Shown here piece by piece: positions 42,078-64,000 of a stretch of DNA of 64,000 nucleotides. Position 1 is the stretch's first letter. Each line of letters begins with the position of its first letter. This DNA is from Trueperaceae bacterium (GTDB lineage Bacteria > Deinococcota > Deinococci > Deinococcales > Trueperaceae): positions 1 to 64,000 of the forward strand of contig JAMLIB010000002.1 in assembly GCA_023954415.1 (NCBI GenBank), read 5' to 3'. The position numbers and the translations under genes are program-made. The notes under the pieces are model-generated. The model made no database searches. It was not told where the DNA came from and saw only the letters and a list, made by a program, of their open reading frames with translations.

Positions 42078-42337
42078 GGTCGATCTCCGGTCAGCGCGCT
42101 CAGCGCGCGCAGCAGCGTAGCGGCGGAACCCGTCAGGTACGGTCGCGGCGCCAGCGCCGCCCAACGAACCTGGTCCACGGACCTGGTTCGCCGCGCTCGG
42201 CTCCGCCTACCCCGTCCCGTCGCTTCCTGTCGCAAGGCGAACCTAGCATGCCTTCAGGTGGCCGGGTGGCAACTCGCCTCCGGTTGTAGTGTGTGCTCAA
42301 AGCTACATGGCGGCGAACCAAGAAGACCAGGAGGTCC

Positions 42338-47182: not shown

Positions 47183-50100
47183 TCGCTCCGTCCGATCAAC
47201 TCGCACGCGACCAGGCTCTCACCCGCCACGACCGCACCCTGCTCATCGAGGCGGGTGCCGGCTCCGGCAAGACCGCGATCCTGGCGGGCAGGGTGGCTCT
47301 CATGCTCGCCGGCGGCATCCCCGCGAGGAGCATCGTGGCCATAACGTTCACCGAGGCGGCGGCCAGCGAGCTCTCCACTCGCATCAGGTCGTACGTGAAC
47401 ATGCTCGCCGACGGTGGCGCCCCGCCACCCGAGCTGGCCGCCACGCTCGCAGAAGGCCTTAGCGACGAGCAGCTCGACCATCTCGACAACGCCAGAGACG
47501 AACTCGACGAGCTGACCTGCACCACCATCCACGGCTTCTGCCGCAGGCTCGTGGGCCCTTACCCGGTGGAGACGGACTCCGACCCGGGTGCCGGCGTTGC
47601 CGATCCGATCACTGCGCGGCTCATCCTCCAAGACACCGTGGAAGAGTGGCTCCGCGACCACCTCGGCGAGGCGAACGACGGCTTCCTCGTGGAGCTCGTC
47701 CAACACGACGCCAAGCAGGCCGTCAAGCTGATCGGCGAGCTCGCGGAGACCATGTGCGATCACGCAGAGGTGAGACCACCTCAGGTGACGGACCTGGCGC
47801 TCGTGCGCCAGGCGGTCGCCGTCACGATCACCGCCTTCATCGAGCATGTGCGCGCCGGCCGTTTCCACGTCGCGGAAGTCGAGGCGGTCGTCCAGGACAT
47901 GGAGGCGCTGCTGGACGCCCTTCCGACGAACGATCCGAAGAGCCTGCTGCGCTTCCTCGAGTTGGGTGGCGGCAACGTCCTGAAGCAGGACGGAGACTTC
48001 AAGGTCTTCAAGCTCAAGGGCAAGTACGAGGCGGCGGCCGGCGCCAACGGGTGCACCAGGCAGCAGGCGGGCGAGGCGTACATCGCGGCACAAGCACGCT
48101 ACGCAGCCGCAGCCGAGGCCTGGCCCGCGCTGCGCGCCGAGGCGGCGAGCACGATGCTCGCGGGGCTGATGCGCGAGGCCAGCCTGGCCGTCGGGCAGTA
48201 TCACCTTCGCAAGCGCGGCTCGGCGCTACTCGACTTCAACGACCTGATCCACAAGGCCCGGGCGCTGCTGGCGAACGACGAGGCTGTCCGCCGGGCGTTG
48301 AGCGCACGCTACCGGCACGTGCTCGTGGACGAGTTCCAGGACACCGACCCGCACCAGGCCGAGATCCTGTGGCGCCTCTGCGGCGAGGCCGACCCGGAGG
48401 CACCGGACGACTGGACCAAGCGCGTGCTGCGCCCTGGCGCGCTCTTCCTGGTGGGAGACCCGAAGCAGGCGATATACCGCTTCCGCGGCGCCGACATCGC
48501 TACCTACGTGCGCTCGCGCGACGCCATCGGCGCGGCCGACCCGGGTTCGCTGCTCTCGATCACCACGAACTTCCGGTCCAGGGCGGGTGTCCTGGACTAC
48601 GTGAACACCTGCTTCGAGGAAGGGTTGCGTGCCGAGGGCCAACCGGGGTTCGCCAGGCTCGAGGCTCGACGACCCGACCGGAATGCCGGACCGACCGTAG
48701 CGCGGCTCATCGTCGAGTGCGACGAAGAGGCGAAGATGGACGAGGCCAGGGCGCGCGAAGCGGGGGCCGTGGCCGAACTGTGCGCCTCCCTGTTGACCAG
48801 TCACACCGTCGATGACGGCAGGGGGTCCAGCCGACCTCTGCGGCCAAGGGACATCGCACTACTGGCACCCACAGGCGCCGGGCTCCACGCGTACGAGGAA
48901 GCCTTGGAAGCGCTAGCCATACCCGTATCCAGCCAGGCGGGCAAGACGTTCTGGCAGCGGCAGGAGATACAGGACATGATCGCCCTCACGCGCGTCCTCG
49001 CCGACGGGCGCGACGGACTGGCCCTGTTGGCCTTCCTGCGTGGCCCCCTCGTCGGCCTGACCGACGAGGAGCTGCTCGACATCAACTGGCAACTGCCGCC
49101 GGACGAGCGCGCACCTGGGTGGCCGACACGGCTGAACGTGAACACCCCGCTCGAACACGTCCGTCACCCGCTCGCGCACGATGTCCTGGAGCGCCTCCAG
49201 ACACTGCGGCGCTACGCCGCCACGACGACGCCCCACCACATCCTGGCGCAGGCAGTCGAGCATCTGAACATCCGCCCGCTCCTCCGACAGCGCCACCGCA
49301 GGCCCGAACGCGCCCTGGCGAACATCCAGGCCTTCCTTGAACTCGCGCGTCCGTACCGGGTGCGCGGGCTCCTGCAGTTCGCCGCCATGGCCGAGAGCAG
49401 CTGGGAGGACTCCGAGCGCGCCGTGGAAGGCAGGGCGGACGTCCAGGAAGACACGGTCGCGCTGGTGACCATGCACGCTTCCAAGGGCCTCGAGTGGCCG
49501 GTAGTCATCCCTATCAACACCATGTCCAGCCCGAAAGGGCAGGAGAACGCCTTCGTCGACCGCCGAGACATGCGGCTCTATCGCACCATCCTCGGGGCCA
49601 AGCCGCGAGGCTTCGAAGAGGCCATCGCCAGGGAGGAAGCCCAAGCGGGCTTCGAGCGGCAGCGGCTCTGGTACGTCGCCACCACCCGGGCACGCGAGGT
49701 GCTCATCATCCCGTGGGTCAAGGTCAAGGACTCGGGTCGCCGTTGGCGTGAGGCAGTGCCACTGATGGTCGAGGACCTGAGTGAGTTCGAGGTCAACGGT
49801 GCCAGCGCAAGGACCCCGGTGGTCTCGGAGGTCATCAACAACGAACAAGCGCGCGACGTCTTCAGCGAGCAAGCCCAGGCGATCGAGGGGTTGAGCGCTC
49901 GGCGCAAGTGGGCGCGCCCCAGCCGCGACGAAGGCTCTGACGACGAGCCCCCAGAGGCCGCCGAGGTGGCGGCAGGCATGGAGATCCTACGTTTCCTGGA
50001 GGCCGACACGGACGAGCCTCTCGAAGCCTCGCCGCAAGGTGGCCGGCTGCGAGGCACCGTGCTGCACAAGCTGCTCGAGGAGGTGCTCACGGCTGAGCTG

Positions 50101-50526
50101 ACCGAAGATCCGGCCGCCGTAGAGTCGCGCGCTCGCCAGTTGATCCACATCCTCGGGCACGAACCGAGCGAAGACCCGGCCCACGGGTTGGCGCCGGCCG
50201 AACTCGCCGCCACCGTGCTGCGCGCGCTGGCGCTACCGGAGGTCGTGGAGTTGAGGCCCGGCCTCGAGCCGGAGCTATCGGTCTTCGCCCTGAACGAACT
50301 CGGCGAGGGCCGAGAGGAGGTCGTCGTCGGAGTCGCGGACGCGATCAAGTGGGCGCCAGACGGAACGGCTGAGGTGGTCGTGGACTGGAAGAGCGACGTG
50401 AGGCCTAGCAGCCGGGCACTGTCCAAGTACGTGGGCCAGGTGCGGGACTACCTGGCGGCTACCGGGGCGAAGCACGGCCTCATCGTGTTGGCGACCGTGG
50501 GGCGGTGTCTGCGGGTGAGCGCTTGA
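47179..50526 (+). CDS. AddA-like helicase-nuclease (UvrD superfamily)
   Basis: 1115 residues from GTG 47179. Helicase motifs: Walker A EAGAGSGKTAIL (near 24), ITFTEAAASEL, VDEFQDTDPHQAEIL (near 383), GDPKQAIYRFRGAD, TMHASKGLEWPVVI (near 765) and LWYVATTRAREVLII. The C-terminal nuclease has LRGTVLHKLLEEV, GVADAIKW and VVVDWKSDVRP (near 1067), then YVGQVRDYL, the PD-(D/E)XK layout of AddA/RecB. Together with the previous two genes it forms a helicase-nuclease operon. GC content and codon use match the host backbone, unlike the opposing operon. Confidence 0.92.
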   Translation: MIAPSDQLARDQALTRHDRTLLIEAGAGSGKTAILAGRVALMLAGGIPARSIVAITFTEAAASELSTRIRSYVNMLADGGAPPPELAATLAEGLSDEQLDHLDNARDELDELTCTTIHGFCRRLVGPYPVETDSDPGAGVADPITARLILQDTVEEWLRDHLGEANDGFLVELVQHDAKQAVKLIGELAETMCDHAEVRPPQVTDLALVRQAVAVTITAFIEHVRAGRFHVAEVEAVVQDMEALLDALPTNDPKSLLRFLELGGGNVLKQDGDFKVFKLKGKYEAAAGANGCTRQQAGEAYIAAQARYAAAAEAWPALRAEAASTMLAGLMREASLAVGQYHLRKRGSALLDFNDLIHKARALLANDEAVRRALSARYRHVLVDEFQDTDPHQAEILWRLCGEADPEAPDDWTKRVLRPGALFLVGDPKQAIYRFRGADIATYVRSRDAIGAADPGSLLSITTNFRSRAGVLDYVNTCFEEGLRAEGQPGFARLEARRPDRNAGPTVARLIVECDEEAKMDEARAREAGAVAELCASLLTSHTVDDGRGSSRPLRPRDIALLAPTGAGLHAYEEALEALAIPVSSQAGKTFWQRQEIQDMIALTRVLADGRDGLALLAFLRGPLVGLTDEELLDINWQLPPDERAPGWPTRLNVNTPLEHVRHPLAHDVLERLQTLRRYAATTTPHHILAQAVEHLNIRPLLRQRHRRPERALANIQAFLELARPYRVRGLLQFAAMAESSWEDSERAVEGRADVQEDTVALVTMHASKGLEWPVVIPINTMSSPKGQENAFVDRRDMRLYRTILGAKPRGFEEAIAREEAQAGFERQRLWYVATTRAREVLIIPWVKVKDSGRRWREAVPLMVEDLSEFEVNGASARTPVVSEVINNEQARDVFSEQAQAIEGLSARRKWARPSRDEGSDDEPPEAAEVAAGMEILRFLEADTDEPLEASPQGGRLRGTVLHKLLEEVLTAELTEDPAAVESRARQLIHILGHEPSEDPAHGLAPAELAATVLRALALPEVVELRPGLEPELSVFALNELGEGREEVVVGVADAIKWAPDGTAEVVVDWKSDVRPSSRALSKYVGQVRDYLAATGAKHGLIVLATVGRCLRVSA

Positions 50527-50647: not shown

Positions 50648-53305
50648 TCAAATAGTCGTTTTCGGCGTTAGGAACGCTAACGCCGGGTTCACCTTGGGCC
50701 GCCTGAATGGCAAGCCCAAGTGCGGGACTTCTCGTTCTAGGCGCTCCACTGATTGCTGGAGAACGGTTAGCTCTGCGGTTGAAGGAGGTTCGGCGGCCTC
50801 GGCTAGCGGTTGTGCTTCGTTGAGGAGCAGCAGGGCCTCCCAATCTCTCATGACCAGTACGCTGCCGTCCGAACCTGTTCGTACTGCAAGAACAATCCGG
50901 TGGATCGTTGCATCCGTCCCAGTCACCTCGTCTTCCACCTGTACAAGGACCACCGGGCCCTCCAGATTGCCTACGCGGCATAGGAAGGACGGCCTGGCAC
51001 CGAACTCCTTGACAGCCCGGTCTATGAGCGGATGGCCCATACCTAGCAGGTGATTCAGCGAACGCTCATACGGCATGTCTCGATTGAACACGAGGCCGTC
51101 ATATCGAGACCGGAACTCAAGCGAACCGCGCCAGGCCTCTGGCGTCGCCACCGAGAGCCCTGCATCTGTTCGCGTCACGCGCCGACCCAGGTGCTGCATG
51201 ACGTTCCTGAAGAATGGCTCCAGTGCAGGCAGGTCAAGTCGTGGGATGTCGGAGCCCACGGACTGGAAATCGTAATGTGCAACACTTCCTACCAGTTGAC
51301 GCACGGTCGCTACCACGTCCTGTCCACCGAACTGCTGCGTATGTGCGTCGAACCAGGTTGAGAGGCCGTCCTCATCGACGACCGTAGCATGCGTGAACAA
51401 CTCATCGAAAAAGTGGCTCCCAGTCATGCCAATCACCAGCTGGGTAATGTCCTCTTCTACCTCCATAGATGCAGACAGGGTGGCTTGGATCCGCCCCAAT
51501 TTCTCCTCTAATAGTTCCCAAATCCGCGCCTCTACGGTGTCGGGGTTGCGGAGTATGAAGACCCTTACTGGCCTCTTCTGCCCGTACCTGTTTACTCGTC
51601 CAACCCGTTGGTGAAGCCTCATCGGGTTCCATGGAAGATCCAGGTGAACTAGTGTGGCACAGCGTTCCTGGAGATCGATACCCTCTCCACCAGCTTCGGT
51701 GGAAATCAAGAAGCGAATACGACCGGCATTGAAGTCGGAAGCCGCCGTATCTCGATTGCTCGTGTATGACCGTTCCGATCCATCAGGTTGTTCCGTGGTC
51801 AGCTTGTCATCTCCGTTGATGAAACCCGCGCAGCCAATCCCGTATCGCGCTTCAAGCGCCGAATAAGCCAGCGCCTGGGTGGCCTTGTACTCAGTAAAGA
51901 GAAGCAGGGGCTCGTCGGAGGTCAGGCGCTTGTCGATTAGGTGCAACAGACTCGCAACCTTGGATTCGTGCGAGATCGTCCTAGCCAAGTTGATCAAGTC
52001 ATCCAGACGGTTGATCTCATCCGACATCAATAGCAGTTCCCACTCGACCGGGCGACGCTCCTCACCCTCCGCCGCTTCGTCCAGAGTCTCGTTTTCATCC
52101 TCAACAGTCGGCGGAAGCCGTTCACTTAGCATTTTCTTAAGCATCGCTCGGCGTCCGCGAAGCGCACGCGTGATTGCGGCGATGGAACTCGCAGCAAGCT
52201 TCTGGAGCGCAACCAGCAACAACATGCGAGCAGTCTGCTGTCTCCCCGATAGGCTCATGGCGTAGGCCCGCCCGTCAATGATGAACTCACTCATCGTGGT
52301 GTAGAACTGCGCTTCCGCGGGCACGTAGGAGTAATCGATAGACTCAGTGCTCACCGGTTGGAACAGCTTGTTGCCGTGTAGGTCCGTGACGGACGCCTTG
52401 TTGTTGCGAATCATAGCCTGCGGCAATGCGTAAAGCTGCTCGGCAATATCCCTGTTCGGGTCGAACAAGTCTCGTCGCAGCAACTGCATGAGAGCGAGGA
52501 AGCCAAAGTCCTTCCCTCGGTGGGGCGTGCCCGTCAACAAGACCAGCGAACTTATGCGCTCGGACTCATCCAGTTGGCGCAGCAAGTTGTATGTCAACGT
52601 CGACGCGCGCTCCTGCGCCTGGAAGTGGTGCGCCTCATCGACGAGCACCATGTCCCAGGCCTCAGCTCTCAACAACCGTTCCAGAGCCCTCTCCTGCCGC
52701 AGCGTTTGGAAGGAGGCCACCACTTGGCTGGCTGTCTCCCAGAACGATACCGACCCCTTGTCCTGCGCGGTGGAGTACTCCTGAAGGCGAATGTCGAACA
52801 TGCTCTTCAGCCGGTCACGCCACTGAGGCACTAGGCGCGCCGGGGCAAGCACGAGGAGTCGCCTCACTCGTCCACCTGCCATAAGGGGCTCGAGAATCAG
52901 ACCAGCTTCGATGGTCTTACCCAAACCGACATCGTCCGCGACCAACCAGCGCGTCGGCCACGTCCGCGTGACCTGCTTGCACACCCACAGTTGATGCGGT
53001 AGGAGCCTGACCCGGGACCGAGAGAAGACACCCCATTGATCGTTAATCGACCTGATAAGCAAAGCTTGGGCCTTGGCCAGCGAACCAAGCGATCCGTCGA
53101 GCGTCCCCTCGAGGAGGACATCCTTGAACGAACGAATGCGAACGAGTTCGTGAGCTTCAACCTGGTGTAGATTCGTGTCGAAGCGCACAACAACCGTCGG
53201 TCCAAGGTCCGTCACTACCCGGCCTTCACCATGAACGGGGTGTGAAACGACCTCGTCCTGCAAGTAGCTAACCACGAGCCCCCAGCGAGCCAGACACACC
53301 AGCAC
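50648..53305 (-). CDS. SNF2/RapA-type helicase, second gene of low-GC operon
   Basis: 885 residues from GTG 53305 (GTG 53275 also possible). A short N-terminal beta domain (DEVVSHPVHGEGRVV) precedes SNF2 motifs: VADDVGLGKTIEAG (near 125), LVDEAHHF (DEAH, near 223), LLTGTPHRG, LLFTEYKATQAL, FLISTEAGGEGIDLQ and LHQRVGRVNRYGQKRPV. This matches the RapA/HepA and DrmD-like group of nucleic-acid translocases. No nuclease motif seen. It starts 59 bases after the stop of the giant sacsin-like gene, so they are cotranscribed. GC content is visibly lower than that of flanking genes, a sign of transfer. Confidence 0.9.
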   Translation of the reverse strand: MLVCLARWGLVVSYLQDEVVSHPVHGEGRVVTDLGPTVVVRFDTNLHQVEAHELVRIRSFKDVLLEGTLDGSLGSLAKAQALLIRSINDQWGVFSRSRVRLLPHQLWVCKQVTRTWPTRWLVADDVGLGKTIEAGLILEPLMAGGRVRRLLVLAPARLVPQWRDRLKSMFDIRLQEYSTAQDKGSVSFWETASQVVASFQTLRQERALERLLRAEAWDMVLVDEAHHFQAQERASTLTYNLLRQLDESERISSLVLLTGTPHRGKDFGFLALMQLLRRDLFDPNRDIAEQLYALPQAMIRNNKASVTDLHGNKLFQPVSTESIDYSYVPAEAQFYTTMSEFIIDGRAYAMSLSGRQQTARMLLLVALQKLAASSIAAITRALRGRRAMLKKMLSERLPPTVEDENETLDEAAEGEERRPVEWELLLMSDEINRLDDLINLARTISHESKVASLLHLIDKRLTSDEPLLLFTEYKATQALAYSALEARYGIGCAGFINGDDKLTTEQPDGSERSYTSNRDTAASDFNAGRIRFLISTEAGGEGIDLQERCATLVHLDLPWNPMRLHQRVGRVNRYGQKRPVRVFILRNPDTVEARIWELLEEKLGRIQATLSASMEVEEDITQLVIGMTGSHFFDELFTHATVVDEDGLSTWFDAHTQQFGGQDVVATVRQLVGSVAHYDFQSVGSDIPRLDLPALEPFFRNVMQHLGRRVTRTDAGLSVATPEAWRGSLEFRSRYDGLVFNRDMPYERSLNHLLGMGHPLIDRAVKEFGARPSFLCRVGNLEGPVVLVQVEDEVTGTDATIHRIVLAVRTGSDGSVLVMRDWEALLLLNEAQPLAEAAEPPSTAELTVLQQSVERLEREVPHLGLPFRRPKVNPALAFLTPKTTI

Positions 53306-53364
53306 CTGAAAGTCGGTTAGGGTGCCTCCGTGAATCTGCGACTATCATGCCCCGTGGCCTCGGA

Positions 53365-56300
53365 TCATTGCTGAACATGCAGTTGGAGAGGTAGGTCCAA
53401 GTCGCCCTGGAAGTCAGCTCGGTTACCCAGCGACTTACGGACCTTGTCATATACAACGCGGGAAAGGTCCATCTGGTTTCCACCCTGTGTATTGAGCCCG
53501 GCTTCCTCCAATCCGAGGAAGTCGCGTACGCGACGCGTGGCTGACCAGGCATAGGGATGCAAGAGCGCTGCCTCGCCCGGCCGCCACAGGCCATTGCGGG
53601 CGGCCTCACGGATCATCCAATTTGCCCCCAGGCCGAGGCTTTGTGTTAGCGGACCGCCCTCCAACCCTCTGCGTTGCCAAATAGGTGACGCGCTCAACCG
53701 CCAGGCATCCGACAGCGAAAAGGGGCCAGTCTTAGCAACCACCGGCAGCAGCCGAAAGGCCTCGGCATACTCAGGCAACCAACGAGCTGCAGCATAGAGA
53801 TCAACGACGGCCCGGTGCCACTGGGGATAATCGATATAGGTTGCGTCACCGGATGCAAACGCTTCGAGACGGGATATCCACGGCTCCGGGGCCTCTGGAA
53901 GCCTCGCGCTGGCCATCTCCTGCCACCAACCACGCTCCGTAGCACGGTCAATGAAGTTGCGATGTGCACTGTCCCTGGTCCGGCCTATCGTTCGGAAGAT
54001 GCCCAAGGCGAAGAATGTGAACCACGTCTCTCGGTCAAACTTCTCATCCATTGCCTGGAGCCGTTGCCAATCGAACCTGGTGGGATACACGTCATCAAAA
54101 TACCGGCTCGCCTTGTCTTGCCGATTACGGTTCCACCATGAATAGAGGTCCTCTAGCCGCGCGTCAAGAGCGTAGGTGTCTGCGCTCTGAAGCGCGTGGG
54201 TCTCCTCCTCAAACTCGTCCTCAAGAACGAATGCCACGGCCCAGCGCCTTTGGCTTTCACGCGGGTATAGCCGGCTTAAGAGGATATCGCGGCTGCGTTC
54301 GTCCATCCCCTCAACCAACGGTGACTGCTTCATAGACTCGGGACTCGCTGGAATCCAGGCAGGTTTCAGGCGAGCGAGTTCATCCGCCATCTCGTCACCG
54401 GACGTCCACTTCACAAGATACTGGATGGCTGCTCGCTGCGCGGAAGGGTTGCTACACTCTGCCGCCCACCGCGCAATGGTGCGCGCATCCCTCTGGAACC
54501 CACCTTGCTCACTGGCCAACTGATAAAAGTCTAGGCCCATACCTACGTAACCAGGAGCTGCTACTACGCTCTTGGGAGCGAATTGAAGGAGTGTGCTCTC
54601 TAGCTTGTCGGTCGGGACGGAGGCTCTCGGCGGTAACGCAACCCGGCCCCATGTTCCATCCTCCATGCGGAACTGGGCGTCCTTCCTCAATAACTCACGT
54701 ACCTCTGTCTGCTCGTTCCGGTCGAATTGCTCGAACCACTGCTTGGCCACAATCGTCCCAAGGCGCCCTGCCAGCTCCTGGTCAATCCGAGAACCCTTAC
54801 CGACCTCCAGCTTCAGCAGTTCACGTAAGCGAAGTGCCGGTGGCTTAGAGAATCCAAGGTCAGCAAGTGTTTCGGCCGTCGCGCTGCCAATGCTCGTGGA
54901 TAGCAACCCGCCTATTGACTTCCACCCCTCCAAGGTCGCCAGGAACCCGGCTTCTGCCATTGCACCTGACACCAGGTGTCGAACAGCACCCAACTCCACC
55001 AGGGGAGCGAACGGACCAGGTAGGCCAGACGGCAACGACCGCCTGGAACTGAGTAGATAACCTAAGCCTCGATCAGTATCGTGCAAACGTCTGGCCACGG
55101 GGTCTTTGAGGTCAGCGGAGAAGAGATCAAAGAGTTTCATGAGAAAGTGGTCGCTACCGCGGGACCCTTGCGTGTCAATCAGGCCTGCGGACTCTGCAAA
55201 CTCGGCCCAACCGGTCGTTACCAACTCGTAGAGGTCGACCAGGGCCGCGCCAAGCGCGCGGCCCGTGTCCCGAAACAATTCATGCTTTTGCTCCAAGGTC
55301 CCGGCCAACCGTCCCCGACCAGGATCGACCCGGAAGGACCAGTTGTTCATCAGCCAACCGACGCGAAGTTCCTCCTCCAGTGGGGCAAGGCTCCACAGGC
55401 GTGGTACGCCAACCTCGGCGGGGACGGGTCCAACCCCATCTAGACACAAGAACAGGCGCACTTGATCACTTAGTTCTAGTGCCAGGGCCTTACGTACACT
55501 TGAACCTCCCAAGGTGACGAGCCGTACACCTGGCTTCCTCGTTTGATCGAAATGCGCGGTCCACGTCAGCACCCGTTCATGGCCGAGCTCAATCCTCCTA
55601 ATGTGCCTTGTCATGGCGGGAAGCCAGGGTGCCGACGCACGAAACCCAGTGATGGCTGAGTTCACCTGCTCTTCACACTTCGGATCCTCGACCAATTCGA
55701 TTATTGTGGCCGAACGCCCTCCAACCTTGTGAGCAGACGACACTCTCCGACCGCTGGCCCAAATCTCAGGTAGCATTCCGCCCCGAATTCTGCACGCGAC
55801 GAACCTACTTGCCACCCCTACCTCTTTGCAGAATAGGTGCACACCCTTGAACCCAAGCCCGAACCTGCCAGTTACACCTTCCCGCTTGTTCGAAAGGTTC
55901 AAGGTCAGCATATTGGAGAGGTCACGCCCCCAGCCCATTCTCTCACCAACCTTGGGGTCTTCGCCCAAGTGGTTTATTGGCCTGCCCCAATGGACAATGC
56001 GCAATTGATCGGGCGACTCCTCACTCTGAACGATCTTGAAGCGGGCCTCGCCAGCGACAGGCTGCTGCGCATAAGCATCATCGGCATTCTGAAAGAGTTC
56101 GAAGAACACGCGCTTTGAGTCGTAACCCAGCTCGGTCAATGCATTGCGAACCGCGTTGAGCAGGGCGGCGTGGCCGTTTGGGGTGTTGAGCTTGTTCCAC
56201 AGGGTGAACTTCGCTCTCCGTCTTGCTAGGTATCTTTCTCTAGGGGCCACCCGGTAGATGTCCGAATCGAATAGGTTCAAAGCGTCGCTCACCAGCCCCA

Positions 56301-59300
56301 CATTCGGTGGCTTCAACTGTCGAATCGTATTATCCAAGTGGTCGTTGACTTCGTCCAGAACGCTCTGAACATCCACCTGGTCGGGAATTGCATGGTCAGC
56401 CAGAAGGCTAGCGAGCGCATCTGTAAATGCGGTTTGCTGGGTCGGCTCTCCGTAGACAATCCGGGAGACTTCCAGGCAGAGGGCTTTGAGCCCCGATTCA
56501 TCAGGAGTGCCGCCGGCAGGAGTTGCGACCTGGAGGGAGTAGATGCGCCGACCGGTAATTACTTCCGATTGTGCGCTTCCACGCACCCTGAAGCCCCCGA
56601 TGACCCCCAGGGGGCGGATGTCATCGCGCGTTGGAACGGTAGCCATTGAACCCGCAAGCGTCTCCACGTTTACTGAGGCTAGGTTCTCCGCAAGGGCCGT
56701 AACCACGACCAGGCGCTGTTGGCGCCGCCTTTCTGACCCTGCCGTACCGTTAGGAGCGAATTGAGACTCGACCCGCTCCTCAAGCTCGGTCCACACGCGA
56801 GAGATGTCAGCCTGGGAAGCTTGCCTTAGTTCGGTCCGCACGAGGTTCTCGAATGCGTCTGAACGCCCAAATAGCCCGACGAGGACTAGCAACAACCCGT
56901 GGGGCACAAAGGGCTCCGCATACTGAAGGACACCTCGCAGACCTCTGATTACGTCGCTCTCGAGGCTAGCCAATTCGGCTGGCGAAGGCGTTAGAACGTT
57001 GGCCTTTGACGTTGTTTCGTGTGTCTGGACCGGTCCATTGCTTGTCTGCGGCTGGAGAAGTTGGCGAAGATCGACGCTCAGCAAATGACTGTCGGCTATC
57101 CCCTGCCCGTGGGCTGCAACCTCACTCCCGTTCCTGAAGGCGCCTGACGCAGTTGGCACGAGCACACTGCCGAAGACGTGCCGGCGGACCGCCACTGGCC
57201 ACCGCGAAACGGCTTCGAATGCGAGCTTATAGGCATCGCGCGCTTCGGCCGCACCATTCTCCCACTCGGCAGCCATTGCCGAAAGGTAATTGCAAGCGAG
57301 TATCGGCTCATGATTGTCTACGCTTGCGAACGCTTGAATCAGAACGCTCGGGGGGCGACCATCCTTGAGGCGCAGCAGCGCCGACAGCAGTGGCCAACCA
57401 GGGAGGTTTGCCGAGATGCCTCTTCTCGCCAAAGCCGGGAGGATCGTCGTGAGTGAGCCCGCAGCACCAAGAAACCCGACCAAGCGCCGATTGGTGGCCA
57501 CGCGCAATACTGCGTCCTCAGCACCAGCGACGCCGGGAAGCAAACCCTTCTCGTGCAATTTGGCGAAGCCAGCGTGATTTCTGACTTCGGGTAAGACCGT
57601 ACTTGCAAGCGCAAAGGCCCCATGGTCAGTCCCAAGCGCCTCCTGGACGGCCTGTTCAACTTCTGGAGGAAGTTCAAGTACCTCTTTGGGACACCAACAG
57701 TTGTCATGTACATCCCTTATCCAGCGACCCCTGCGCACGTTCTCCGGCAGTTCCATGGAACCCATATGTTGCAGAGCCTCCAGGATGGGTAGAGCGTACA
57801 AATGGGGATCCGGCTGACCAGCTGCCACCTCTAACTGAGAACTCGGCGACCATTCACCAACGAGCTGCTCGGCCCGGGTGCTGGCCTCGGAGGGCTCTGT
57901 GGGTAGCCATCGGTGTACGACGCCTGCCATACCTGCCGGAATGGGCCATCTTAACGTCTCACGCCAAAGATCCAACGGACGACAGAGCTGGCCGTGCTGG
58001 TTCCTAAGGATTGGAATGCTACGCAAATGCTCGTTAGCTAAGTTCGAGCAAAGCAAGTCCCTGACAGTTGCTTCGTCCAGCGAAGGGGCTTCGAGGGCAC
58101 TTGCATTGTCAACCAGCATCCTGCCAAATTGCTCGGTGTCAAGCTCCGTGATACGCAAGAAATTCCTCTGCTGGGGTGAAAGGTTGGATGCAATCTCTCT
58201 GCTGACCAATATTGCGTCTCCCGACCCCGCCAGGAGGCGCAGGGCCAACTGATCTAGCTGAGCCGTCCGTTCCGGGAGTGCAACGAGAGCGCGGCCTAGC
58301 GAGGCAGCTTGCTGGTCGCCGGTCGCCAACACCCGAAGAGCGCGAGTCGCTTCTAAGCCGCCGCCTTCCGCATATACCTCAGACAGGAGTCTCTCGCGGT
58401 CCGAGGCCGGGCCAAAATGGGCAGCACGCGTTGCGAGTGAGGCAAATGCCTGCAAAGTCGGTTCGGTGGCCTTGAAGGGTTCGCCTGCAAGTTCGTCAAG
58501 CAGCGCTGCGGCCGCGCCCCTAACGATAAGTGCGCCTGAACCAGGAGCTGCCTTACTGAGCAGGCCGAATAGTCTTTCTGTCCTCGGGTCGGACTTGAAG
58601 AGGCGGCCCTCACGGGAGGCAGCGGTAACCTCTTGGAGACTTACGGCTACAGGTTTACCGCTACCGTCGTCCGCGCGGAAGCAACGGAGTTCGGCAAACC
58701 GAGGATTGCTCACGGCCCCTGGCTCGTGGACAAGGACCAGCCCAGCAATCGCAAGTGCTGCGGAGCCAGCCACATCGCTCCGCGCACCAAGCGCGGTTCT
58801 GTCCTCGCGCACATCCTGGTCCAGGAGCGGTTGCAGCGCTTCAAGCAGTCGTATCCCCGCTGCTACAGATAGTCGCCGAACCTTCGCGCTTTCGGGAAGC
58901 CACTCATCGCGTAGGCATGCCTCTACATCATCAGCCGTAGCAAGCGCTTGCAAAACGTAGACCCTACTCGCTGCGTGGGGGAGCGGAACCGCAGAGCACG
59001 CGGGGAGGAACCGCCATATCCCCCGCATCGCTTCGTCACTTGCAAGGTTCCGCGCGTCTGCTATTGCTGTTCGAAAGGCAGCAAGAAGCGCGTCGGCGCC
59101 AGGTTTCGACAACTGCTGGTCACCCAGGGCCACTTCCAACATGGCGGCAAGCGCCCTGGCACGTGCGTCATTGATGAAGACATCTGCCGCCAGGGAAGAC
59201 AGCAACTCATCCAGTTCCTTGTGAGTCCACTCGGCACCTTCCAACGCAAGGGACGTTGAGAGCCCCGGTGCAAGCTTCAGCCCACGCTCGGCTGCCCAGT

Positions 59301-60771
59301 TCGTGAGGCCACCGACCACTAGCCCATCCAACTCAACCGCGCTGACGGGACCGAGCACCGGTAAAGGTCGCAAGTTTGTCCTAACGGAGACTAGTTGCCA
59401 GCCCGAGTGGTCAATGTCAGCCCGAGAATCGAATAAGCGGACCAACATGACACGTGAGGTAAGACTGGCTATGTGCCTTCGCCCAAACTCGCTCTGCCTG
59501 ATTGCTGTTACGAGCGTTGATAGGTCCGCAGGTGAAACCACGTCCGCTTTCAAGGCATCATGAAGCACCGTCGGCAGGAGTGGGAGTAGCACTTTGTCCC
59601 TCAGCGCCTCATTCCATTCGACCGCTACGGAACTACTACCTTCGCCGTCCCCGGCAGCCAAGACGTACTGCCTTCCAGCGTCCACAAAGAAGTAGCCGTG
59701 CAGGAGGATCTTGATCGTCCGCGTCGTACCTTCAAGCGTGGCAGCAGGTTCTATGGGTAGGAAAACTCCCCAATCAATAGTTACTTCATGACGCCCGCAA
59801 TCACGCTCCCCGGAGTCCCACGTCACCAGGATTACTGCAGCGTGCGAGGCAGCCTTTCTAGGAAGGTACTTCAGACCTTCCCCAGAAATCACAGGGTCCC
59901 GAGGCCACTTCTCGCCCTTCTGGAGCTCGGTGAGGTCGTCAACCAGTGGTTGTACTTCCCTGCCCACATATCGACAAGCTGAACCGGAATTGGTATGGAT
60001 GGATCCTTGGAACTCAGCCTCCGCGCCTTCTCCAAGTTGATCTGGACCGAGCATGCTGTTAGAGCCAAGCCCCAGTCGATGGAGTGACAGAAGTGTGCGG
60101 GTCTGATCTGCGATCTCGATGCTCGTCAGTTTGCGCAGAGAAGCGAGAATCAACCTGAGTTCTGGCTCTTGCTTCAGCAGCTCGGGCAACAGTCTTTCGG
60201 CCGTGGGCCTGGCCTCAGTAAAACTCAGTTTCGGCGCAGGTAAGAGATCATCGCGGCGAAAAGGAACCCAAATCAGTAGCGCTCGCTCCAAAGATCCCGC
60301 TGACCCCTCTAGGAGAGAAAGATCCTCGTCATGAAGAGGATCCCACTCACGTGCGTTTGAATTGGGTAGCCCGAAGCAAGGATTCACGACCATTGAGAAG
60401 GCCGTCTCATATCCAAGCGCATGCACAACAAATGCATCGCATAGGTGGAAGAGTGCCTTTTGACCGAACCCGAACCTACCAATGTCCGTAACCCGACCGG
60501 TCTTGTGGCTATCGCCAAGCGACATGATGCCTTCACCATCCTGCGCATCAAACTTCCCGTTGTTGACTACCAATAGCCCCGGAACCCTGAACAGAGGATT
60601 CCGCGCGTTGACCCAACCCGGCAGGGCGTGGAAGAAGATGTCATTGGCGTCGGCATCCTCGGCGTTTTGGATGAGTTCCTTAATAATGGGGAACCCACTC
60701 TTATACCGATCACCCAAGTTCTCCCTTATCAGGTTGAACTGGGCTGTTGGGCTCGTCTTCAGATCAGGCAT
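53365..60771 (-). CDS. Giant protein with two sacsin/HSP90-type GHKL ATPase domains
   Basis: 2468 residues from ATG 60771 (GGGGG six bases upstream); an in-frame extension to 60882 reads as non-conserved sequence. GHKL domain 1: KELIQNAEDADAND (near residues 32-43, the Mg/ATP Asn box), NNG near 70, DIGRFGFGQKALFH near 96-109. GHKL domain 2 near residues 1540-1660: FFELFQNADDAYAQQ, then GRFGLGFKGVHLF. Both lid motifs are intact, so both may bind ATP. The other about 2000 residues are mostly helical and match no motif I know; no nuclease motif is visible. Sacsin-like proteins are chaperone-like, and bacterial versions often sit beside helicases in defence loci. Partner: the SNF2 helicase. Confidence 0.85.
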   Translation of the reverse strand: MPDLKTSPTAQFNLIRENLGDRYKSGFPIIKELIQNAEDADANDIFFHALPGWVNARNPLFRVPGLLVVNNGKFDAQDGEGIMSLGDSHKTGRVTDIGRFGFGQKALFHLCDAFVVHALGYETAFSMVVNPCFGLPNSNAREWDPLHDEDLSLLEGSAGSLERALLIWVPFRRDDLLPAPKLSFTEARPTAERLLPELLKQEPELRLILASLRKLTSIEIADQTRTLLSLHRLGLGSNSMLGPDQLGEGAEAEFQGSIHTNSGSACRYVGREVQPLVDDLTELQKGEKWPRDPVISGEGLKYLPRKAASHAAVILVTWDSGERDCGRHEVTIDWGVFLPIEPAATLEGTTRTIKILLHGYFFVDAGRQYVLAAGDGEGSSSVAVEWNEALRDKVLLPLLPTVLHDALKADVVSPADLSTLVTAIRQSEFGRRHIASLTSRVMLVRLFDSRADIDHSGWQLVSVRTNLRPLPVLGPVSAVELDGLVVGGLTNWAAERGLKLAPGLSTSLALEGAEWTHKELDELLSSLAADVFINDARARALAAMLEVALGDQQLSKPGADALLAAFRTAIADARNLASDEAMRGIWRFLPACSAVPLPHAASRVYVLQALATADDVEACLRDEWLPESAKVRRLSVAAGIRLLEALQPLLDQDVREDRTALGARSDVAGSAALAIAGLVLVHEPGAVSNPRFAELRCFRADDGSGKPVAVSLQEVTAASREGRLFKSDPRTERLFGLLSKAAPGSGALIVRGAAAALLDELAGEPFKATEPTLQAFASLATRAAHFGPASDRERLLSEVYAEGGGLEATRALRVLATGDQQAASLGRALVALPERTAQLDQLALRLLAGSGDAILVSREIASNLSPQQRNFLRITELDTEQFGRMLVDNASALEAPSLDEATVRDLLCSNLANEHLRSIPILRNQHGQLCRPLDLWRETLRWPIPAGMAGVVHRWLPTEPSEASTRAEQLVGEWSPSSQLEVAAGQPDPHLYALPILEALQHMGSMELPENVRRGRWIRDVHDNCWCPKEVLELPPEVEQAVQEALGTDHGAFALASTVLPEVRNHAGFAKLHEKGLLPGVAGAEDAVLRVATNRRLVGFLGAAGSLTTILPALARRGISANLPGWPLLSALLRLKDGRPPSVLIQAFASVDNHEPILACNYLSAMAAEWENGAAEARDAYKLAFEAVSRWPVAVRRHVFGSVLVPTASGAFRNGSEVAAHGQGIADSHLLSVDLRQLLQPQTSNGPVQTHETTSKANVLTPSPAELASLESDVIRGLRGVLQYAEPFVPHGLLLVLVGLFGRSDAFENLVRTELRQASQADISRVWTELEERVESQFAPNGTAGSERRRQQRLVVVTALAENLASVNVETLAGSMATVPTRDDIRPLGVIGGFRVRGSAQSEVITGRRIYSLQVATPAGGTPDESGLKALCLEVSRIVYGEPTQQTAFTDALASLLADHAIPDQVDVQSVLDEVNDHLDNTIRQLKPPNVGLVSDALNLFDSDIYRVAPRERYLARRRAKFTLWNKLNTPNGHAALLNAVRNALTELGYDSKRVFFELFQNADDAYAQQPVAGEARFKIVQSEESPDQLRIVHWGRPINHLGEDPKVGERMGWGRDLSNMLTLNLSNKREGVTGRFGLGFKGVHLFCKEVGVASRFVACRIRGGMLPEIWASGRRVSSAHKVGGRSATIIELVEDPKCEEQVNSAITGFRASAPWLPAMTRHIRRIELGHERVLTWTAHFDQTRKPGVRLVTLGGSSVRKALALELSDQVRLFLCLDGVGPVPAEVGVPRLWSLAPLEEELRVGWLMNNWSFRVDPGRGRLAGTLEQKHELFRDTGRALGAALVDLYELVTTGWAEFAESAGLIDTQGSRGSDHFLMKLFDLFSADLKDPVARRLHDTDRGLGYLLSSRRSLPSGLPGPFAPLVELGAVRHLVSGAMAEAGFLATLEGWKSIGGLLSTSIGSATAETLADLGFSKPPALRLRELLKLEVGKGSRIDQELAGRLGTIVAKQWFEQFDRNEQTEVRELLRKDAQFRMEDGTWGRVALPPRASVPTDKLESTLLQFAPKSVVAAPGYVGMGLDFYQLASEQGGFQRDARTIARWAAECSNPSAQRAAIQYLVKWTSGDEMADELARLKPAWIPASPESMKQSPLVEGMDERSRDILLSRLYPRESQRRWAVAFVLEDEFEEETHALQSADTYALDARLEDLYSWWNRNRQDKASRYFDDVYPTRFDWQRLQAMDEKFDRETWFTFFALGIFRTIGRTRDSAHRNFIDRATERGWWQEMASARLPEAPEPWISRLEAFASGDATYIDYPQWHRAVVDLYAAARWLPEYAEAFRLLPVVAKTGPFSLSDAWRLSASPIWQRRGLEGGPLTQSLGLGANWMIREAARNGLWRPGEAALLHPYAWSATRRVRDFLGLEEAGLNTQGGNQMDLSRVVYDKVRKSLGNRADFQGDLDLPLQLHVQQ

Positions 60772-61474: not shown

Positions 61475-62905
61475 ATGGGCCAGTCGAGGAAGCAGGTGCC
61501 TGAGGTTCCGGTTGGGGCGCGGCGCCAGTGGGCGGCGGATCGGGCTTTACGGCCGCCGATGCGGTCACCGGGTCGGCCGGAGCCGTCGCGTGCGGTGCAG
61601 CGTGAGTTCTGGCGCCTGATCGCGTCGGGGATCACGACGGTCGAGGCGGCGGCGGTAGGCGTGTCATCGCCGGTAGCGGTGCGCTGGTTCCGGCATGCTG
61701 GTGGCATGCCGCCGTTGAGCCTGGTTGAGCCCTCGAAGCGTTACCTGTCTTTCGCTGAGCGTGAGGAGATCGCGCTGTTACGCGCACAGGATGTGGGTAT
61801 TCGTGAGATCGCCCGCCGTATCGGGCGTGACGCCAGCACCATCTCACGGGAGGTGCGCCGTAACTCCGCGACCCGCGCCGGGAAGCCCGAGTATCGGGCG
61901 CTGGTGGCTCAGTGGAAGGCGCAGCAGGCCGCCAAGCGCCCCAAGGTAGCGAAGCTCGCGGTCAACACCCGGTTGCGGGAGTACGTGCAAGACCGGCTCA
62001 GTGGGGCTGTTCGTCGGCCTGATGGCACGAGCGTTGCCGGACCCACACCGCCAGCGTGGAAGGGGTTGAACAAGCCGCATCGGGCTGACCGGCGCTGGTC
62101 ACTCTCGTGGAGCCCGGAGCAGATCTCTCAACGGTTGAAGCTCGATTTCCCTGATGATGAGACCATGCGGATCAGTCACGAGGCGATCTACCAAGCCCTG
62201 TTCATCGAGGGTCGCGGCGCGCTCAAGCGGGAGCTGGTCGCGTGCCTGCGCGCCGGGCGAGCGTTACGGCGACCGCGAGAACGATCACGCAACAGGCCGC
62301 AGGGGCATATCACTGCGGATGTGGTGATCTCCGAGCGGCCAGCGGAAGCATCTGATCGCGCCGTTCCCGGGCATTGGGAGGGAGACCTCCTCATCGGCAC
62401 GGGCCGCTCCGCCATCGGCACCCTCGTGGAGCGCAAGAGCCGGTCCACGCTGTTGGTGCACCTACCGCGGCTGGAAGGCTGGGGTGAGAAGCCCGCGGTG
62501 AAGAACGGGCCCGCCCTAGGCGGTTACGGCGCGGTCGCCATGACCGCAGCCCTAACCGCGTCGATCACGAAGTTGCCCGATCAGCTCCGTAAGACGCTCA
62601 CCTGGGATCGCGGCAAGGAACTAACGGCGCACGCCCAGTTCACCCTGGCCACCGGCACGAAGGTGTACTTCGCCGACCCGCACTCACCCTGGCAAAGGGC
62701 CACGAACGAGAACACCAACGGGCTGCTAAGGCAGTACTTTCCCAAAGGCACCGATCTATCGAGGTGGTCAGCGGAGGATCTGGAAGCCGTGGCCTTCACG
62801 CTGAACAACCGCCCCCGAAAAGTCCTCAACTGGAGAACCCCTGCAGAGGTATTCAACGAGCAGCTACAATCACTCCAACAAGACGGTGTTGCAACGACCG
62901 ATTGA
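61475..62905 (+). CDS. IS30-family DDE transposase
   Basis: 476 residues from ATG 61475, with GGAGG six bases upstream. The N-terminal HTH (YLSFAEREEIALLRAQ, then IGRDASTISREVRRNS) binds the ends. DDE catalytic residues: GHWEGDLLIG, TWDRGKEL and the Glu of RATNENTNGLLRQYFPKG, the last being the IS30 hallmark motif. Complete and probably active. Its frame runs through the right inverted repeat, and the last codon and stop (gat tga) come from flanking DNA beyond 62899. Confidence 0.93.
   Translation: MGQSRKQVPEVPVGARRQWAADRALRPPMRSPGRPEPSRAVQREFWRLIASGITTVEAAAVGVSSPVAVRWFRHAGGMPPLSLVEPSKRYLSFAEREEIALLRAQDVGIREIARRIGRDASTISREVRRNSATRAGKPEYRALVAQWKAQQAAKRPKVAKLAVNTRLREYVQDRLSGAVRRPDGTSVAGPTPPAWKGLNKPHRADRRWSLSWSPEQISQRLKLDFPDDETMRISHEAIYQALFIEGRGALKRELVACLRAGRALRRPRERSRNRPQGHITADVVISERPAEASDRAVPGHWEGDLLIGTGRSAIGTLVERKSRSTLLVHLPRLEGWGEKPAVKNGPALGGYGAVAMTAALTASITKLPDQLRKTLTWDRGKELTAHAQFTLATGTKVYFADPHSPWQRATNENTNGLLRQYFPKGTDLSRWSAEDLEAVAFTLNNRPRKVLNWRTPAEVFNEQLQSLQQDGVATTD
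62885..62899 (-). repeat. IS30 right terminal inverted repeat
   Basis: Minus-strand GGTCGTTGCAACACC, pairing with the left end at 61441-61455. Confidence 0.8.
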
Positions 62906-63290
62906 ACTCAGAGAGTACTTCGCCCGCGAGTTCCAGGAGGCCCTGGCACGAAACGCGATCAAGTTCAGGCCGGTCAGGCCGCGCTCGCCGCATCTCAACG
63001 GCAAGGTGGAGCGTTCCCAGCAGACCGACCTAAGGGAGTCCCGGCCCACGGTTGACCTGAGAACGCGAGACTTAGGCATGCAGCTTGAGTACTGGCAGTT
63101 CCACTACAACTGGCATCGGCCGCACGGCGCGCTGGGCGGCAAGACCCCGATCGATCGCTGCGCGAAGCCAAGCGACATCACACCACCACACGAGTACCTA
63201 GACCATCTCTACGATCCCTCTCAGGAACAACCCAGAATCAGGGACAGCGCCGCCGATACCACCGCCGGCAAATTGAAACGAACACTATGA
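62900..63290 (+). pseudogene. IS481/IS3-like transposase, C-terminal remnant
   Basis: Encodes the last third of an integrase-core transposase: FRPVRPRSPHLNGKVERSQQ with the catalytic Glu in VER, and LEYWQFHYNWHRPHGALGGK before the stop at 63290. The two upstream catalytic Asp are missing because the 5' part is absent at the IS30 boundary. The sequence just after the stop (gttccaca, 63291-63298) ends as TGTGGAAC in reverse, like an IS481 terminus; a similar TGTGGAGC lies at 60905. Confidence 0.82.
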
Positions 63291-63456: not shown

Positions 63457-64000
63457 ATGCGCATCATTGACAACGTCAACGCGTTCCTAGGTGACGACCT
63501 CAAGGGTGCGATCAAGCCCGGTTCGCAACTGCGCATTGCGGCGGGCACATTCTCGATCTTCGCCTTCGAGGCGCTGAAGCGCGAGTTGCAATCTATCAAG
63601 GAGCTGGAGTTCATCTTCACTGCACCGTCGTTCACGGCGACGACTGCTACAGACAAGCCCGCACCTGAGAAGCGGCAGTTCTTCATCCCGAACCACAAGA
63701 ACCAGGGCGTCGCTCTGTACGGCTCGGAGTTCGAGATCCGCCTGCGAAACAAGCTCACCCAACGCGCCATCGCTCGCGAGTGCGCCGACTGGGTGCGGCA
63801 GAAGGCAACGTTTCGCTCCAACCGCACCGGCGCGCCGATGCAACCGGTCGCGACAGTAGATGAGCATGCTGCCTACTTTCCTATCCAGGGTTTTACAACG
63901 TCCGATCTTGGTTACGAGCGTGGACCAGCGGTGTCGAACTACGTCACGAAGTTCGAGGGCGCCGCGGAGACGCGGCAGTTCGTACAGCTCTTCGACCAGA
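63457..64000 (+). CDS. N-terminus of a possible PLD-like/SNF2-type helicase protein, 3' partial
   Basis: The frame from ATG 63457 is open to the window edge (181 codons). It begins MRIIDNVNAFLGDDLKGAI, then QLRIAAGTFSIFAFEALKREL, a pattern like the N-terminal phospholipase D-like domain of large defence-associated SNF2 helicases (RIASGYFS-type strand). Then KRQFFIPNHKNQGVALYGSE and LTQRAIARECADWVRQKATF. The helicase part would lie outside the window, so the assignment is tentative. It continues the defence-like region past the insertion sequences. Confidence 0.6.
   Translation, partial: MRIIDNVNAFLGDDLKGAIKPGSQLRIAAGTFSIFAFEALKRELQSIKELEFIFTAPSFTATTATDKPAPEKRQFFIPNHKNQGVALYGSEFEIRLRNKLTQRAIARECADWVRQKATFRSNRTGAPMQPVATVDEHAAYFPIQGFTTSDLGYERGPAVSNYVTKFEGAAETRQFVQLFDQ

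What the first reader, a model, noticed from the sequence alone, without database searches (positions are those of the whole stretch)
50648..60771. Two-gene operon: giant double-GHKL (sacsin-like) protein plus SNF2 helicase
A 2468-residue protein with two complete HSP90/sacsin-type ATP sites (IQNAEDA/GRFGFG near residues 32-105 and FQNADDA/GRFGLG near 1540-1645) is followed 59 bases later by a RapA/DrmD-like SNF2 helicase. GC is visibly lower than in the neighbours (34/60 in line 57001-57060 against 46/60 in line 42781-42840), and insertion sequences border it. No nuclease, methylase or known effector motif is visible, so it fits none of DISARM, BREX, Zorya or Druantia as I know them. Inferred: a horizontally acquired anti-phage or DNA-quality system in which a chaperone-like ATPase works with a DNA translocase. 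About 2000 residues of the giant protein are unassigned and could hide an effector.
Basis: partly seen in the sequence, partly recalled or inferred. Interest (0 to 1): 0.88.

Follow-up and report, generated by a model that had tools for sequence, protein, structure and literature searches.

The report
Double-clamp ATPase plus DNA translocase operon
A giant protein with two sacsin/HSP90-type ATP engines is encoded directly upstream of a DNA-translocase gene, and the same pair recurs in mobile defence-gene neighbourhoods of at least ten bacterial phyla, which makes it an untested, unnamed candidate anti-phage system.

Summary
A 2468-residue protein (53365-60771, minus strand) is followed 59 bases later by an 885-residue SNF2 helicase (50648-53305); GC is 58% against 70-75% to the left. 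Insertion sequences lie on the upstream side only.

The pairing is a real two-gene unit. A scan of about 85,000 species genomes returned 45 helicases of this clade. The giant, or a remnant of it, lies upstream in all 44 that can be checked, and next to none of 35 other SNF2 helicases. The trees of the two proteins agree (r = 0.92). Both ATP sites are intact throughout. Predicted folds show GHKL plus an S5-like transducer in each half. Neither protein has a conserved nuclease signature.

Neighbours are integrases, conjugation genes, restriction-modification and DISARM genes. The window copy was acquired horizontally.

PADLOC files the helicase family under DrmD, but it falls far below NCBI's DISARM-DrmD cut-off and can sit beside a canonical DrmD. 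The giant matches Tiamat TmtA only at the ATPase domain. I found no named system with these two genes.

Best reading: a nuclease-free, DNA-directed defence system in which a double GHKL clamp is loaded or moved by a dsDNA translocase. Defence is inferred from context; the clamp mechanism is a hypothesis.

The parts
53365..60771 (-). Giant double-GHKL (sacsin-like) ATPase, 2468 residues from ATG (TTG extension to 60882 possible)
   Evidence: Pfam SACS 78.7 bits, NCBIfam P_loop_sacsin 109 bits, 2 stretches
60076..60750 (-). GHKL module 1 (residues 8-232); catalytic Glu32, Asn36, Asp39, Gly98/101/103
   Evidence: AF2 model pLDDT 82; sacsin SR1 5v46_B Z 20.7, rmsd 2.4 over 197 residues; conservation
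59503..60075 (-). S5-like transducer 1 (residues 233-423) with invariant H358, R367 (FFVDxGR motif), W386-N387
   Evidence: MORC3/Hsp90/TopoVI-B/GyrB matches Z 13-15.5 reaching residue about 410-423
55552..56178 (-). GHKL module 2 (residues 1532-1740); Glu1558, Asn1562, Asp1565, Gly1635/1638/1640, Lys1642 all 32/32
   Evidence: Hsp90/GyrB Z about 15, sacsin SR1 Z 13.0
55039..55551 (-). S5-like transducer 2 (residues 1741-1911) with invariant R1819 in a DxGR motif like that of module 1
50648..53305 (-). RapA/DrmD-like SNF2 dsDNA translocase, 885 residues (true start probably about 11 codons downstream of the GTG at 53305)
   Evidence: PADLOC PDLC02634 'DrmD' 768.8 bits over 13-874
61475..62905 (+). 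IS30-type transposase, upstream border of the pair
   Evidence: HTH_38 + rve
62886..63290 (+). Integrase-core (rve_3) fragment, IS remnant
63457..64000 (+). Start of an HKD (PLD)-SNF2 helicase, 1090 aa, continuing beyond the window into a type III RM locus
   Evidence: PADLOC C3a139 HKD+Snf2 406 bits; two Mod, one Res gene downstream

Best explanation
The two genes form a mobile, DNA-directed defence system. The SNF2 protein translocates on dsDNA. The giant is a GHKL clamp: each half carries one GHKL ATPase plus S5-like transducer, as in MutL, MORC, topoisomerase VI and Hsp90, and ATP binding would bring the two modules together within one chain to close a gate on DNA or on a DNA-bound complex. 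The translocase loads the clamp or pushes it along invading DNA, so that replication or transcription of that DNA is blocked by trapping or compaction rather than by cutting, or a host nuclease is called in. Shown here: the obligate pairing, intact ATP sites and helicase motifs, the predicted module folds, horizontal mobility, defence-type neighbourhoods and the absence of a conserved nuclease signature. Inferred: anti-phage or anti-plasmid function, physical complex formation, clamp closure and the non-nucleolytic outcome. I put a defence or mobile-element-conflict role at about 0.75 and the specific nuclease-free clamp mechanism at about 0.35.
For: Pairing: the giant is upstream of 44 of 44 checkable clade helicases and 0 of 35 other SNF2 helicases; 18 loci overlap by 4 nt, which suggests translational coupling. 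Trees co-vary: r = 0.915, best of 2000 permutations 0.23. Catalytic residues are invariant in 31-32 giants while most of the rest is only 24-40% conserved. Predicted modules match sacsin SR1, MORC3, Hsp90, TopoVI-B and GyrB. Mobility: 1 of 61 relatives and 1 of 111 genomes of the phylum carry it; the window helicase is 68% identical to Henriciella's, as close as Gemmobacter's is to Henriciella's (67%), although host RecA is only 64% identical to Gemmobacter's. Neighbourhood: 73 PADLOC families within 10 kb downstream in 14 genomes against 13 in same-contig controls; recurrent neighbours are DrmMI (5 of 45 loci), tyrosine integrase (4), C5 methylase (4), F-type conjugation genes (3), canonical DrmD (3). 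In the window's own genome a type III RM locus follows within 20 kb.
Against: No phage assay exists for any member as far as I could find. The middle of the giant (residues about 424-1531) and its C-terminus (about 1912-2468) have no assigned fold and could bind something other than DNA. Sacsin and Hsp90 act on proteins, so a protein client is possible. The neighbourhood test used one region per genome, counted families rather than loci, and its controls were not matched for mobile islands. Frequent DISARM adjacency allows an accessory role.
Confidence: 0.55

Rival explanations
1. The pair is an optional accessory module of DISARM class 1 or other RM-type systems: a second DrmD-like translocase with a GHKL partner that shapes DNA for a separate methylase/nuclease system, as proposed for MORC/paraMORC proteins in RM operons.
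For: PADLOC itself files the helicase family as DrmD. DrmMI lies near the pair in 5 of 45 loci and canonical DrmD in 3; in L030 and L055 they follow on the same strand. The Trichormus plasmid has drmABC plus DrmMI about 5-17 kb away. GHKL plus SFII helicase operons in RM systems are described (PMC2292703).
Against: About 39 of 45 loci show no DISARM gene in the flanks held, including the window's own. Several carry other systems instead (type III RM, Ssp/Dnd, C5 methylases). No third gene exceeds 5 of 45 loci.
Confidence: 0.2
2. The pair serves the mobile element that carries it (plasmid, integrative element or prophage edge), for example in element-element exclusion, transfer or maintenance, not in host defence.
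For: F-type T4SS genes flank it in 3 loci, tyrosine integrases in 4-5, and it occurs on plasmids of three phyla. In L091 it abuts a prophage integrase.
Against: Defence genes also ride on such elements. The pair occurs with many unrelated element types and also apart from them, so no one transfer pathway fits.
Confidence: 0.15
3. The pair acts on protein complexes: a chaperone-like giant and a RapA-like remodeller that strip or inactivate RNA polymerase or phage replisomes on DNA.
For: The nearest solved relatives of the helicase by sequence are RapA chains. Module 1 is closest to sacsin SR1, module 2 to Hsp90/TRAP1 and GyrB.
Against: GHKL-S5 modules of DNA-acting proteins (MORC, TopoVI-B, GyrB) match nearly as well. 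The long variable regions give no chaperone signature (no J domain or HEPN matched).
Confidence: 0.15

Closest known systems
MORC/paraMORC GHKL ATPases with SFII (including SWI2/SNF2) helicases in RM operons (PMC2292703)
   Same: GHKL + S5 engine encoded next to an SNF2-type helicase in mobile, patchily distributed defence loci
   Different: Those proteins carry one GHKL-S5 module and occur with nucleases or methylases; here there are two modules in about 2,500 residues and no obligate nuclease or methylase gene
DISARM class 1 (DrmD)
   Same: SNF2 helicase of the same broad family (PADLOC PDLC02634 DrmD, 769 bits); sometimes the same locus
   Different: 256.8 bits against the NCBIfam DISARM_DrmD cut-off of 610; no drmA/B/C next to it here; canonical DrmD can be present separately in the same locus (L030)
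Tiamat (TmtA)
   Same: Sacsin-type GHKL at the N-terminus
   Different: Only about 100 of 1300-1650 profile positions match; no second module; no helicase partner in the PADLOC definition as I know it (from memory)
Shedu with GHKL N-terminus, VcSduA (PMC12137116)
   Same: Prokaryotic defence protein using a GHKL ATPase, modelled as a clamp-like dimer
   Different: Fused to a PD-(D/E)xK nuclease; no SNF2 partner
Sacsin (animals)
   Same: Best fold match of module 1 (SR1, Z 20.7) and of the Pfam SACS profile; giant with repeated Hsp90-like modules
   Different: No ubiquitin-like, J or HEPN domain found; operon partner is a DNA translocase
RapA
   Same: Closest solved structures of the helicase by sequence (164 bits)
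   Different: 176.8 bits against the NCBIfam RapA cut-off of 576; obligate giant partner

Membership tests
DISARM | SNF2 subunit scores above the NCBIfam DISARM_DrmD equivalog cut-off (610 bits) | tested here: not met
   256.8 bits; second model DISARM_DrmD_b 154 against 950
DISARM | SNF2 subunit belongs to a PADLOC DrmD model | tested here: met
   PDLC02634 768.8 bits, 13-874 of 900; other DrmD models score much lower (next 232 bits)
DISARM | Core drmA, drmB (DUF1998) and drmC plus a methylase in the locus | tested here: not met
   None among the genes scanned at 42.3-77 kb; the genome's single MZB (PF09369) match is on another contig, C5
Tiamat | Full-length TmtA homology | tested here: not met
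   Best match covers profile positions 28-110 of 1370
MORC/paraMORC RM operons | GHKL + S5 ATPase module | tested here: met
   Both halves
MORC/paraMORC RM operons | Adjacent SFII helicase | tested here: met
   44 of 44 checkable loci
MORC/paraMORC RM operons | Associated nuclease or methylase as a regular operon partner | tested here: not met
   No third gene in more than 5 of 45 loci
MORC/paraMORC RM operons | MORC family-specific sequence motif | not tested
   No MORC profile was run beyond Pfam and NCBIfam; Pfam HATPase_c_3 only 20 bits, below its cut-off of 25
Sacsin-type GHKL ATPase | Pfam SACS / NCBIfam P_loop_sacsin above cut-off | tested here: met
   78.7 (cut-off 32.8) and 109.3 (cut-off 50)
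RapA | NCBIfam RapA equivalog cut-off 576 | tested here: not met
   176.8 bits
Anti-phage defence system | Protects against phage in an assay | not testable with these tools
   Needs an experiment

The most novel reading that the evidence does not exclude
A defence system with no nuclease, methylase or toxin of its own: a translocase loads a single-chain double GHKL gate onto invading DNA and silences it topologically, a bacterial counterpart of eukaryotic MORC compaction, present in at least ten phyla and so far unnamed.
Probability: 0.3. Interest if true: 0.88.

Novelty: new variant of a known kind. Interest (0 to 1): 0.64.

Why it matters
The parts are known kinds, but this pairing recurs as a unit in distant phyla without a name in the libraries searched. 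If it defends cells without cutting DNA, it would link sacsin/MORC-type ATPases to immunity and give a compact two-gene system for asking whether GHKL clamps silence foreign DNA. It would also warn that automatic annotation calling this helicase 'DrmD' hides a separate system.

Tried and rejected
Hidden effector in the giant: looked for invariant catalytic sets in 32 homologues, found none outside the GHKL/S5 modules; fold searches were filled by GHKL matches, so the middle and the C-terminus remain untested rather than shown to be novel. Helicase C-terminus as an active nuclease: no conserved acidic-lysine set in 49 sequences. Housekeeping role: patchy distribution. SNF2 loci L056-L090 as a neutral neighbourhood control: not used for enrichment, because many look like defence helicases; replaced with same-contig regions. 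Terminal repeats of the insertion sequence: none found of 15 nt or more at plausible ends. Paper searches for the same two-gene system returned nothing; subscription papers and bioRxiv at large were not searchable.

Full report
WHAT IS THERE. On the minus strand, a 2468-residue ORF (53365-60771; a TTG start would add 37 residues) is followed after 59 bases by an 885-residue ORF (50648-53305). Homologue alignment suggests that the helicase really starts about 11 codons downstream of its GTG. The pair is 58.4% GC; 81 windows of the same size to its left average 71.5% with a minimum of 69.6%, and third-position GC is 0.62-0.68 against 0.84-0.95 in most neighbouring genes. An IS30-type transposase and an integrase-core fragment lie upstream; downstream is an AddA-like gene, not an insertion sequence. 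Beyond it, the same contig continues with an HKD-SNF2 helicase, two type III Mod genes, an AlbA-type protein and a type III Res gene. On the left, 42293-44425 encodes a UvrD helicase whose N-terminus looks RelE-like to me by eye (no profile was run on that part alone); such a fusion is described for ArmD of ARMADA (PMC12458937).

THE PAIR IS A UNIT. tblastn on plasmids found the giant directly upstream of the helicase in Sphingomonas, two Deinococcus and Trichormus records, with two copies in D. wulumuqiensis. One scan of about 85,000 species genomes with the helicase profile gave 45 full-clade loci at 40-70% identity and then a drop to 29-35%. A giant profile, with tblastn for the doubtful cases, finds giant sequence upstream in 44 of 45; the 45th contig starts 33 bases before the helicase. 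The exceptions are informative: in L031 the giant stops after about 166 residues and methylase-type genes follow; in L033 a PIN-like ORF lies between the two genes. None of 35 other SNF2 loci has the giant. Eighteen loci overlap by exactly 4 nt. In cyanobacteria the giant is split into two ORFs near residue 780, and in Sphingomonas C33 near residue 1607; some other copies are fragmented. The clade has 52 helicase tips and includes no control or canonical DrmD. Giant and helicase distances correlate at r = 0.915, against at most 0.23 in 2000 permutations. By record titles the hosts span Pseudomonadota, Desulfobacterota, Planctomycetota, Chloroflexota, Gemmatimonadota, Cyanobacteriota, Acidobacteriota, Verrucomicrobiota, Spirochaetota and Deinococcota.

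ANATOMY OF THE GIANT. Across 32 full-length giants at about 20-35% identity, the conserved islands are the two ATPase modules, their transducers and scattered tryptophans. E32, Q35, N36, D39, G98, G101 and G103 (31/31) and E1558, Q1561, N1562, D1565, R1597, D1617, G1635, G1638, G1640 and K1642 (32/32) are kept. Two AlphaFold2 models built from 29 window and locus sequences have mean pLDDT 82. Module 1 matches sacsin SR1 (Z 20.7, rmsd 2.4 over 197 residues); with the following region it matches MORC3, TopoVI-B, Hsp90 and GyrB (Z 13-15.5) up to residue about 410-423. Module 2 matches Hsp90 and GyrB at Z about 15. Both transducers carry an invariant arginine in a DxGR motif (R367, R1819); by position this may correspond to the switch lysine or arginine of MutL and Hsp90, which is inference. 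The halves align to each other only over the ATPase domain (probability 96.7%). Outside these modules there is no conserved nuclease-like set. Residues of about 424-1531 and 1912-2468 remain without an assigned fold, and the fold searches barely tested them.

THE HELICASE. SNF2 and helicase-C domains are intact. The closest solved relatives are RapA chains. PADLOC model PDLC02634, named DrmD, covers it end to end, but NCBI's DISARM_DrmD scores 257 against a cut-off of 610. In Marinobacterium (L030) the pair is followed by a canonical DrmD (1554 bits) and DrmMI, so the two helicases are distinct and can coexist.

MOBILITY AND NEIGHBOURS. Only 1 of 61 relatives, 1 of 111 genomes in the phylum and 1 of 385 in another class have the giant; each hit was the query's or centre's own genome. 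The window helicase is 68% identical to that of an alphaproteobacterium (Henriciella), as close as two alphaproteobacteria are to each other (67%), while host RecA is equally far (58-65%) from every group tested. Within 10 kb downstream in 14 genomes, 101 proteins hit 73 PADLOC families at 1e-40, against 13 for 113 proteins from the same contigs; the Pfam lists are integrases, F-type T4SS, ResIII and methylases against two-component systems, transporters and metabolism. This counts families, not loci, so it is suggestive only. By all-against-all BLAST the commonest neighbours are DrmMI (5 of 45 loci), tyrosine integrase (4), C5 methylase (4), F-type conjugation genes (3) and canonical DrmD (3); no third gene is obligatory. 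In an IMG/VR contig the pair abuts the integrase of a prophage.

INTERPRETATION. The simplest account is a two-gene, DNA-directed conflict system. The SNF2 protein supplies directed movement on dsDNA and the giant supplies two ATP-gated GHKL modules that could close on each other in one chain. With no nuclease conserved in either gene, I favour trapping or compaction, or recruitment of a host nuclease, over cutting. Precedent: MORC/paraMORC plus SFII helicase operons (PMC2292703) and GHKL-Shedu (PMC12137116). Hachiman (PMC12278908) shows a helicase acting as a DNA-integrity sensor, but it has its own nuclease. Rivals are a DISARM/RM accessory module, a mobile-element function, and a remodeller of protein complexes on DNA.

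NOVELTY. The parts are known and the combination is unnamed in PADLOC 2.0, NCBIfam 20.0, Pfam and the open papers searched. I rate it a new variant of a known kind; a nuclease-free clamp mechanism would raise that.

Noticed in passing
[quoted passage not shown] followed by a PD-(D/E)XK protein (44468-47182) and an AddA-like helicase-nuclease (47179-50526).
   Followed up: partly
L003:3457-16193 (contig positions about 63.5-76.2 kb, just past the window): Type III RM locus with two tandem Mod methylases, an AlbA_2/HATPase_c_4 protein and an HKD-SNF2 helicase.
   Followed up: partly
L031:223-8575: Thiocystis MAG in which most of the giant is replaced by a cassette of methylase-type and other genes, leaving the first 166 residues and the helicase: a possible system swap or assembly artefact.
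   Followed up: partly
L007, L037, L051: In cyanobacteria the giant is encoded as two or more ORFs with a shared split near residue 780, so the first GHKL half can be a separate protein.
   Followed up: partly
L005:22160-33228 and L010:1910-7413: Two alphaproteobacterial plasmids carry the same HEPN-protein, WYL-protein and TM0106-type RecB-like nuclease genes near a giant; in L010 the giant is truncated and has no helicase.
   Followed up: no
PADLOC model PDLC02634: The model is named DrmD but captures this separate clade, so PADLOC-based annotation may report it as a DISARM component.
   Followed up: yes
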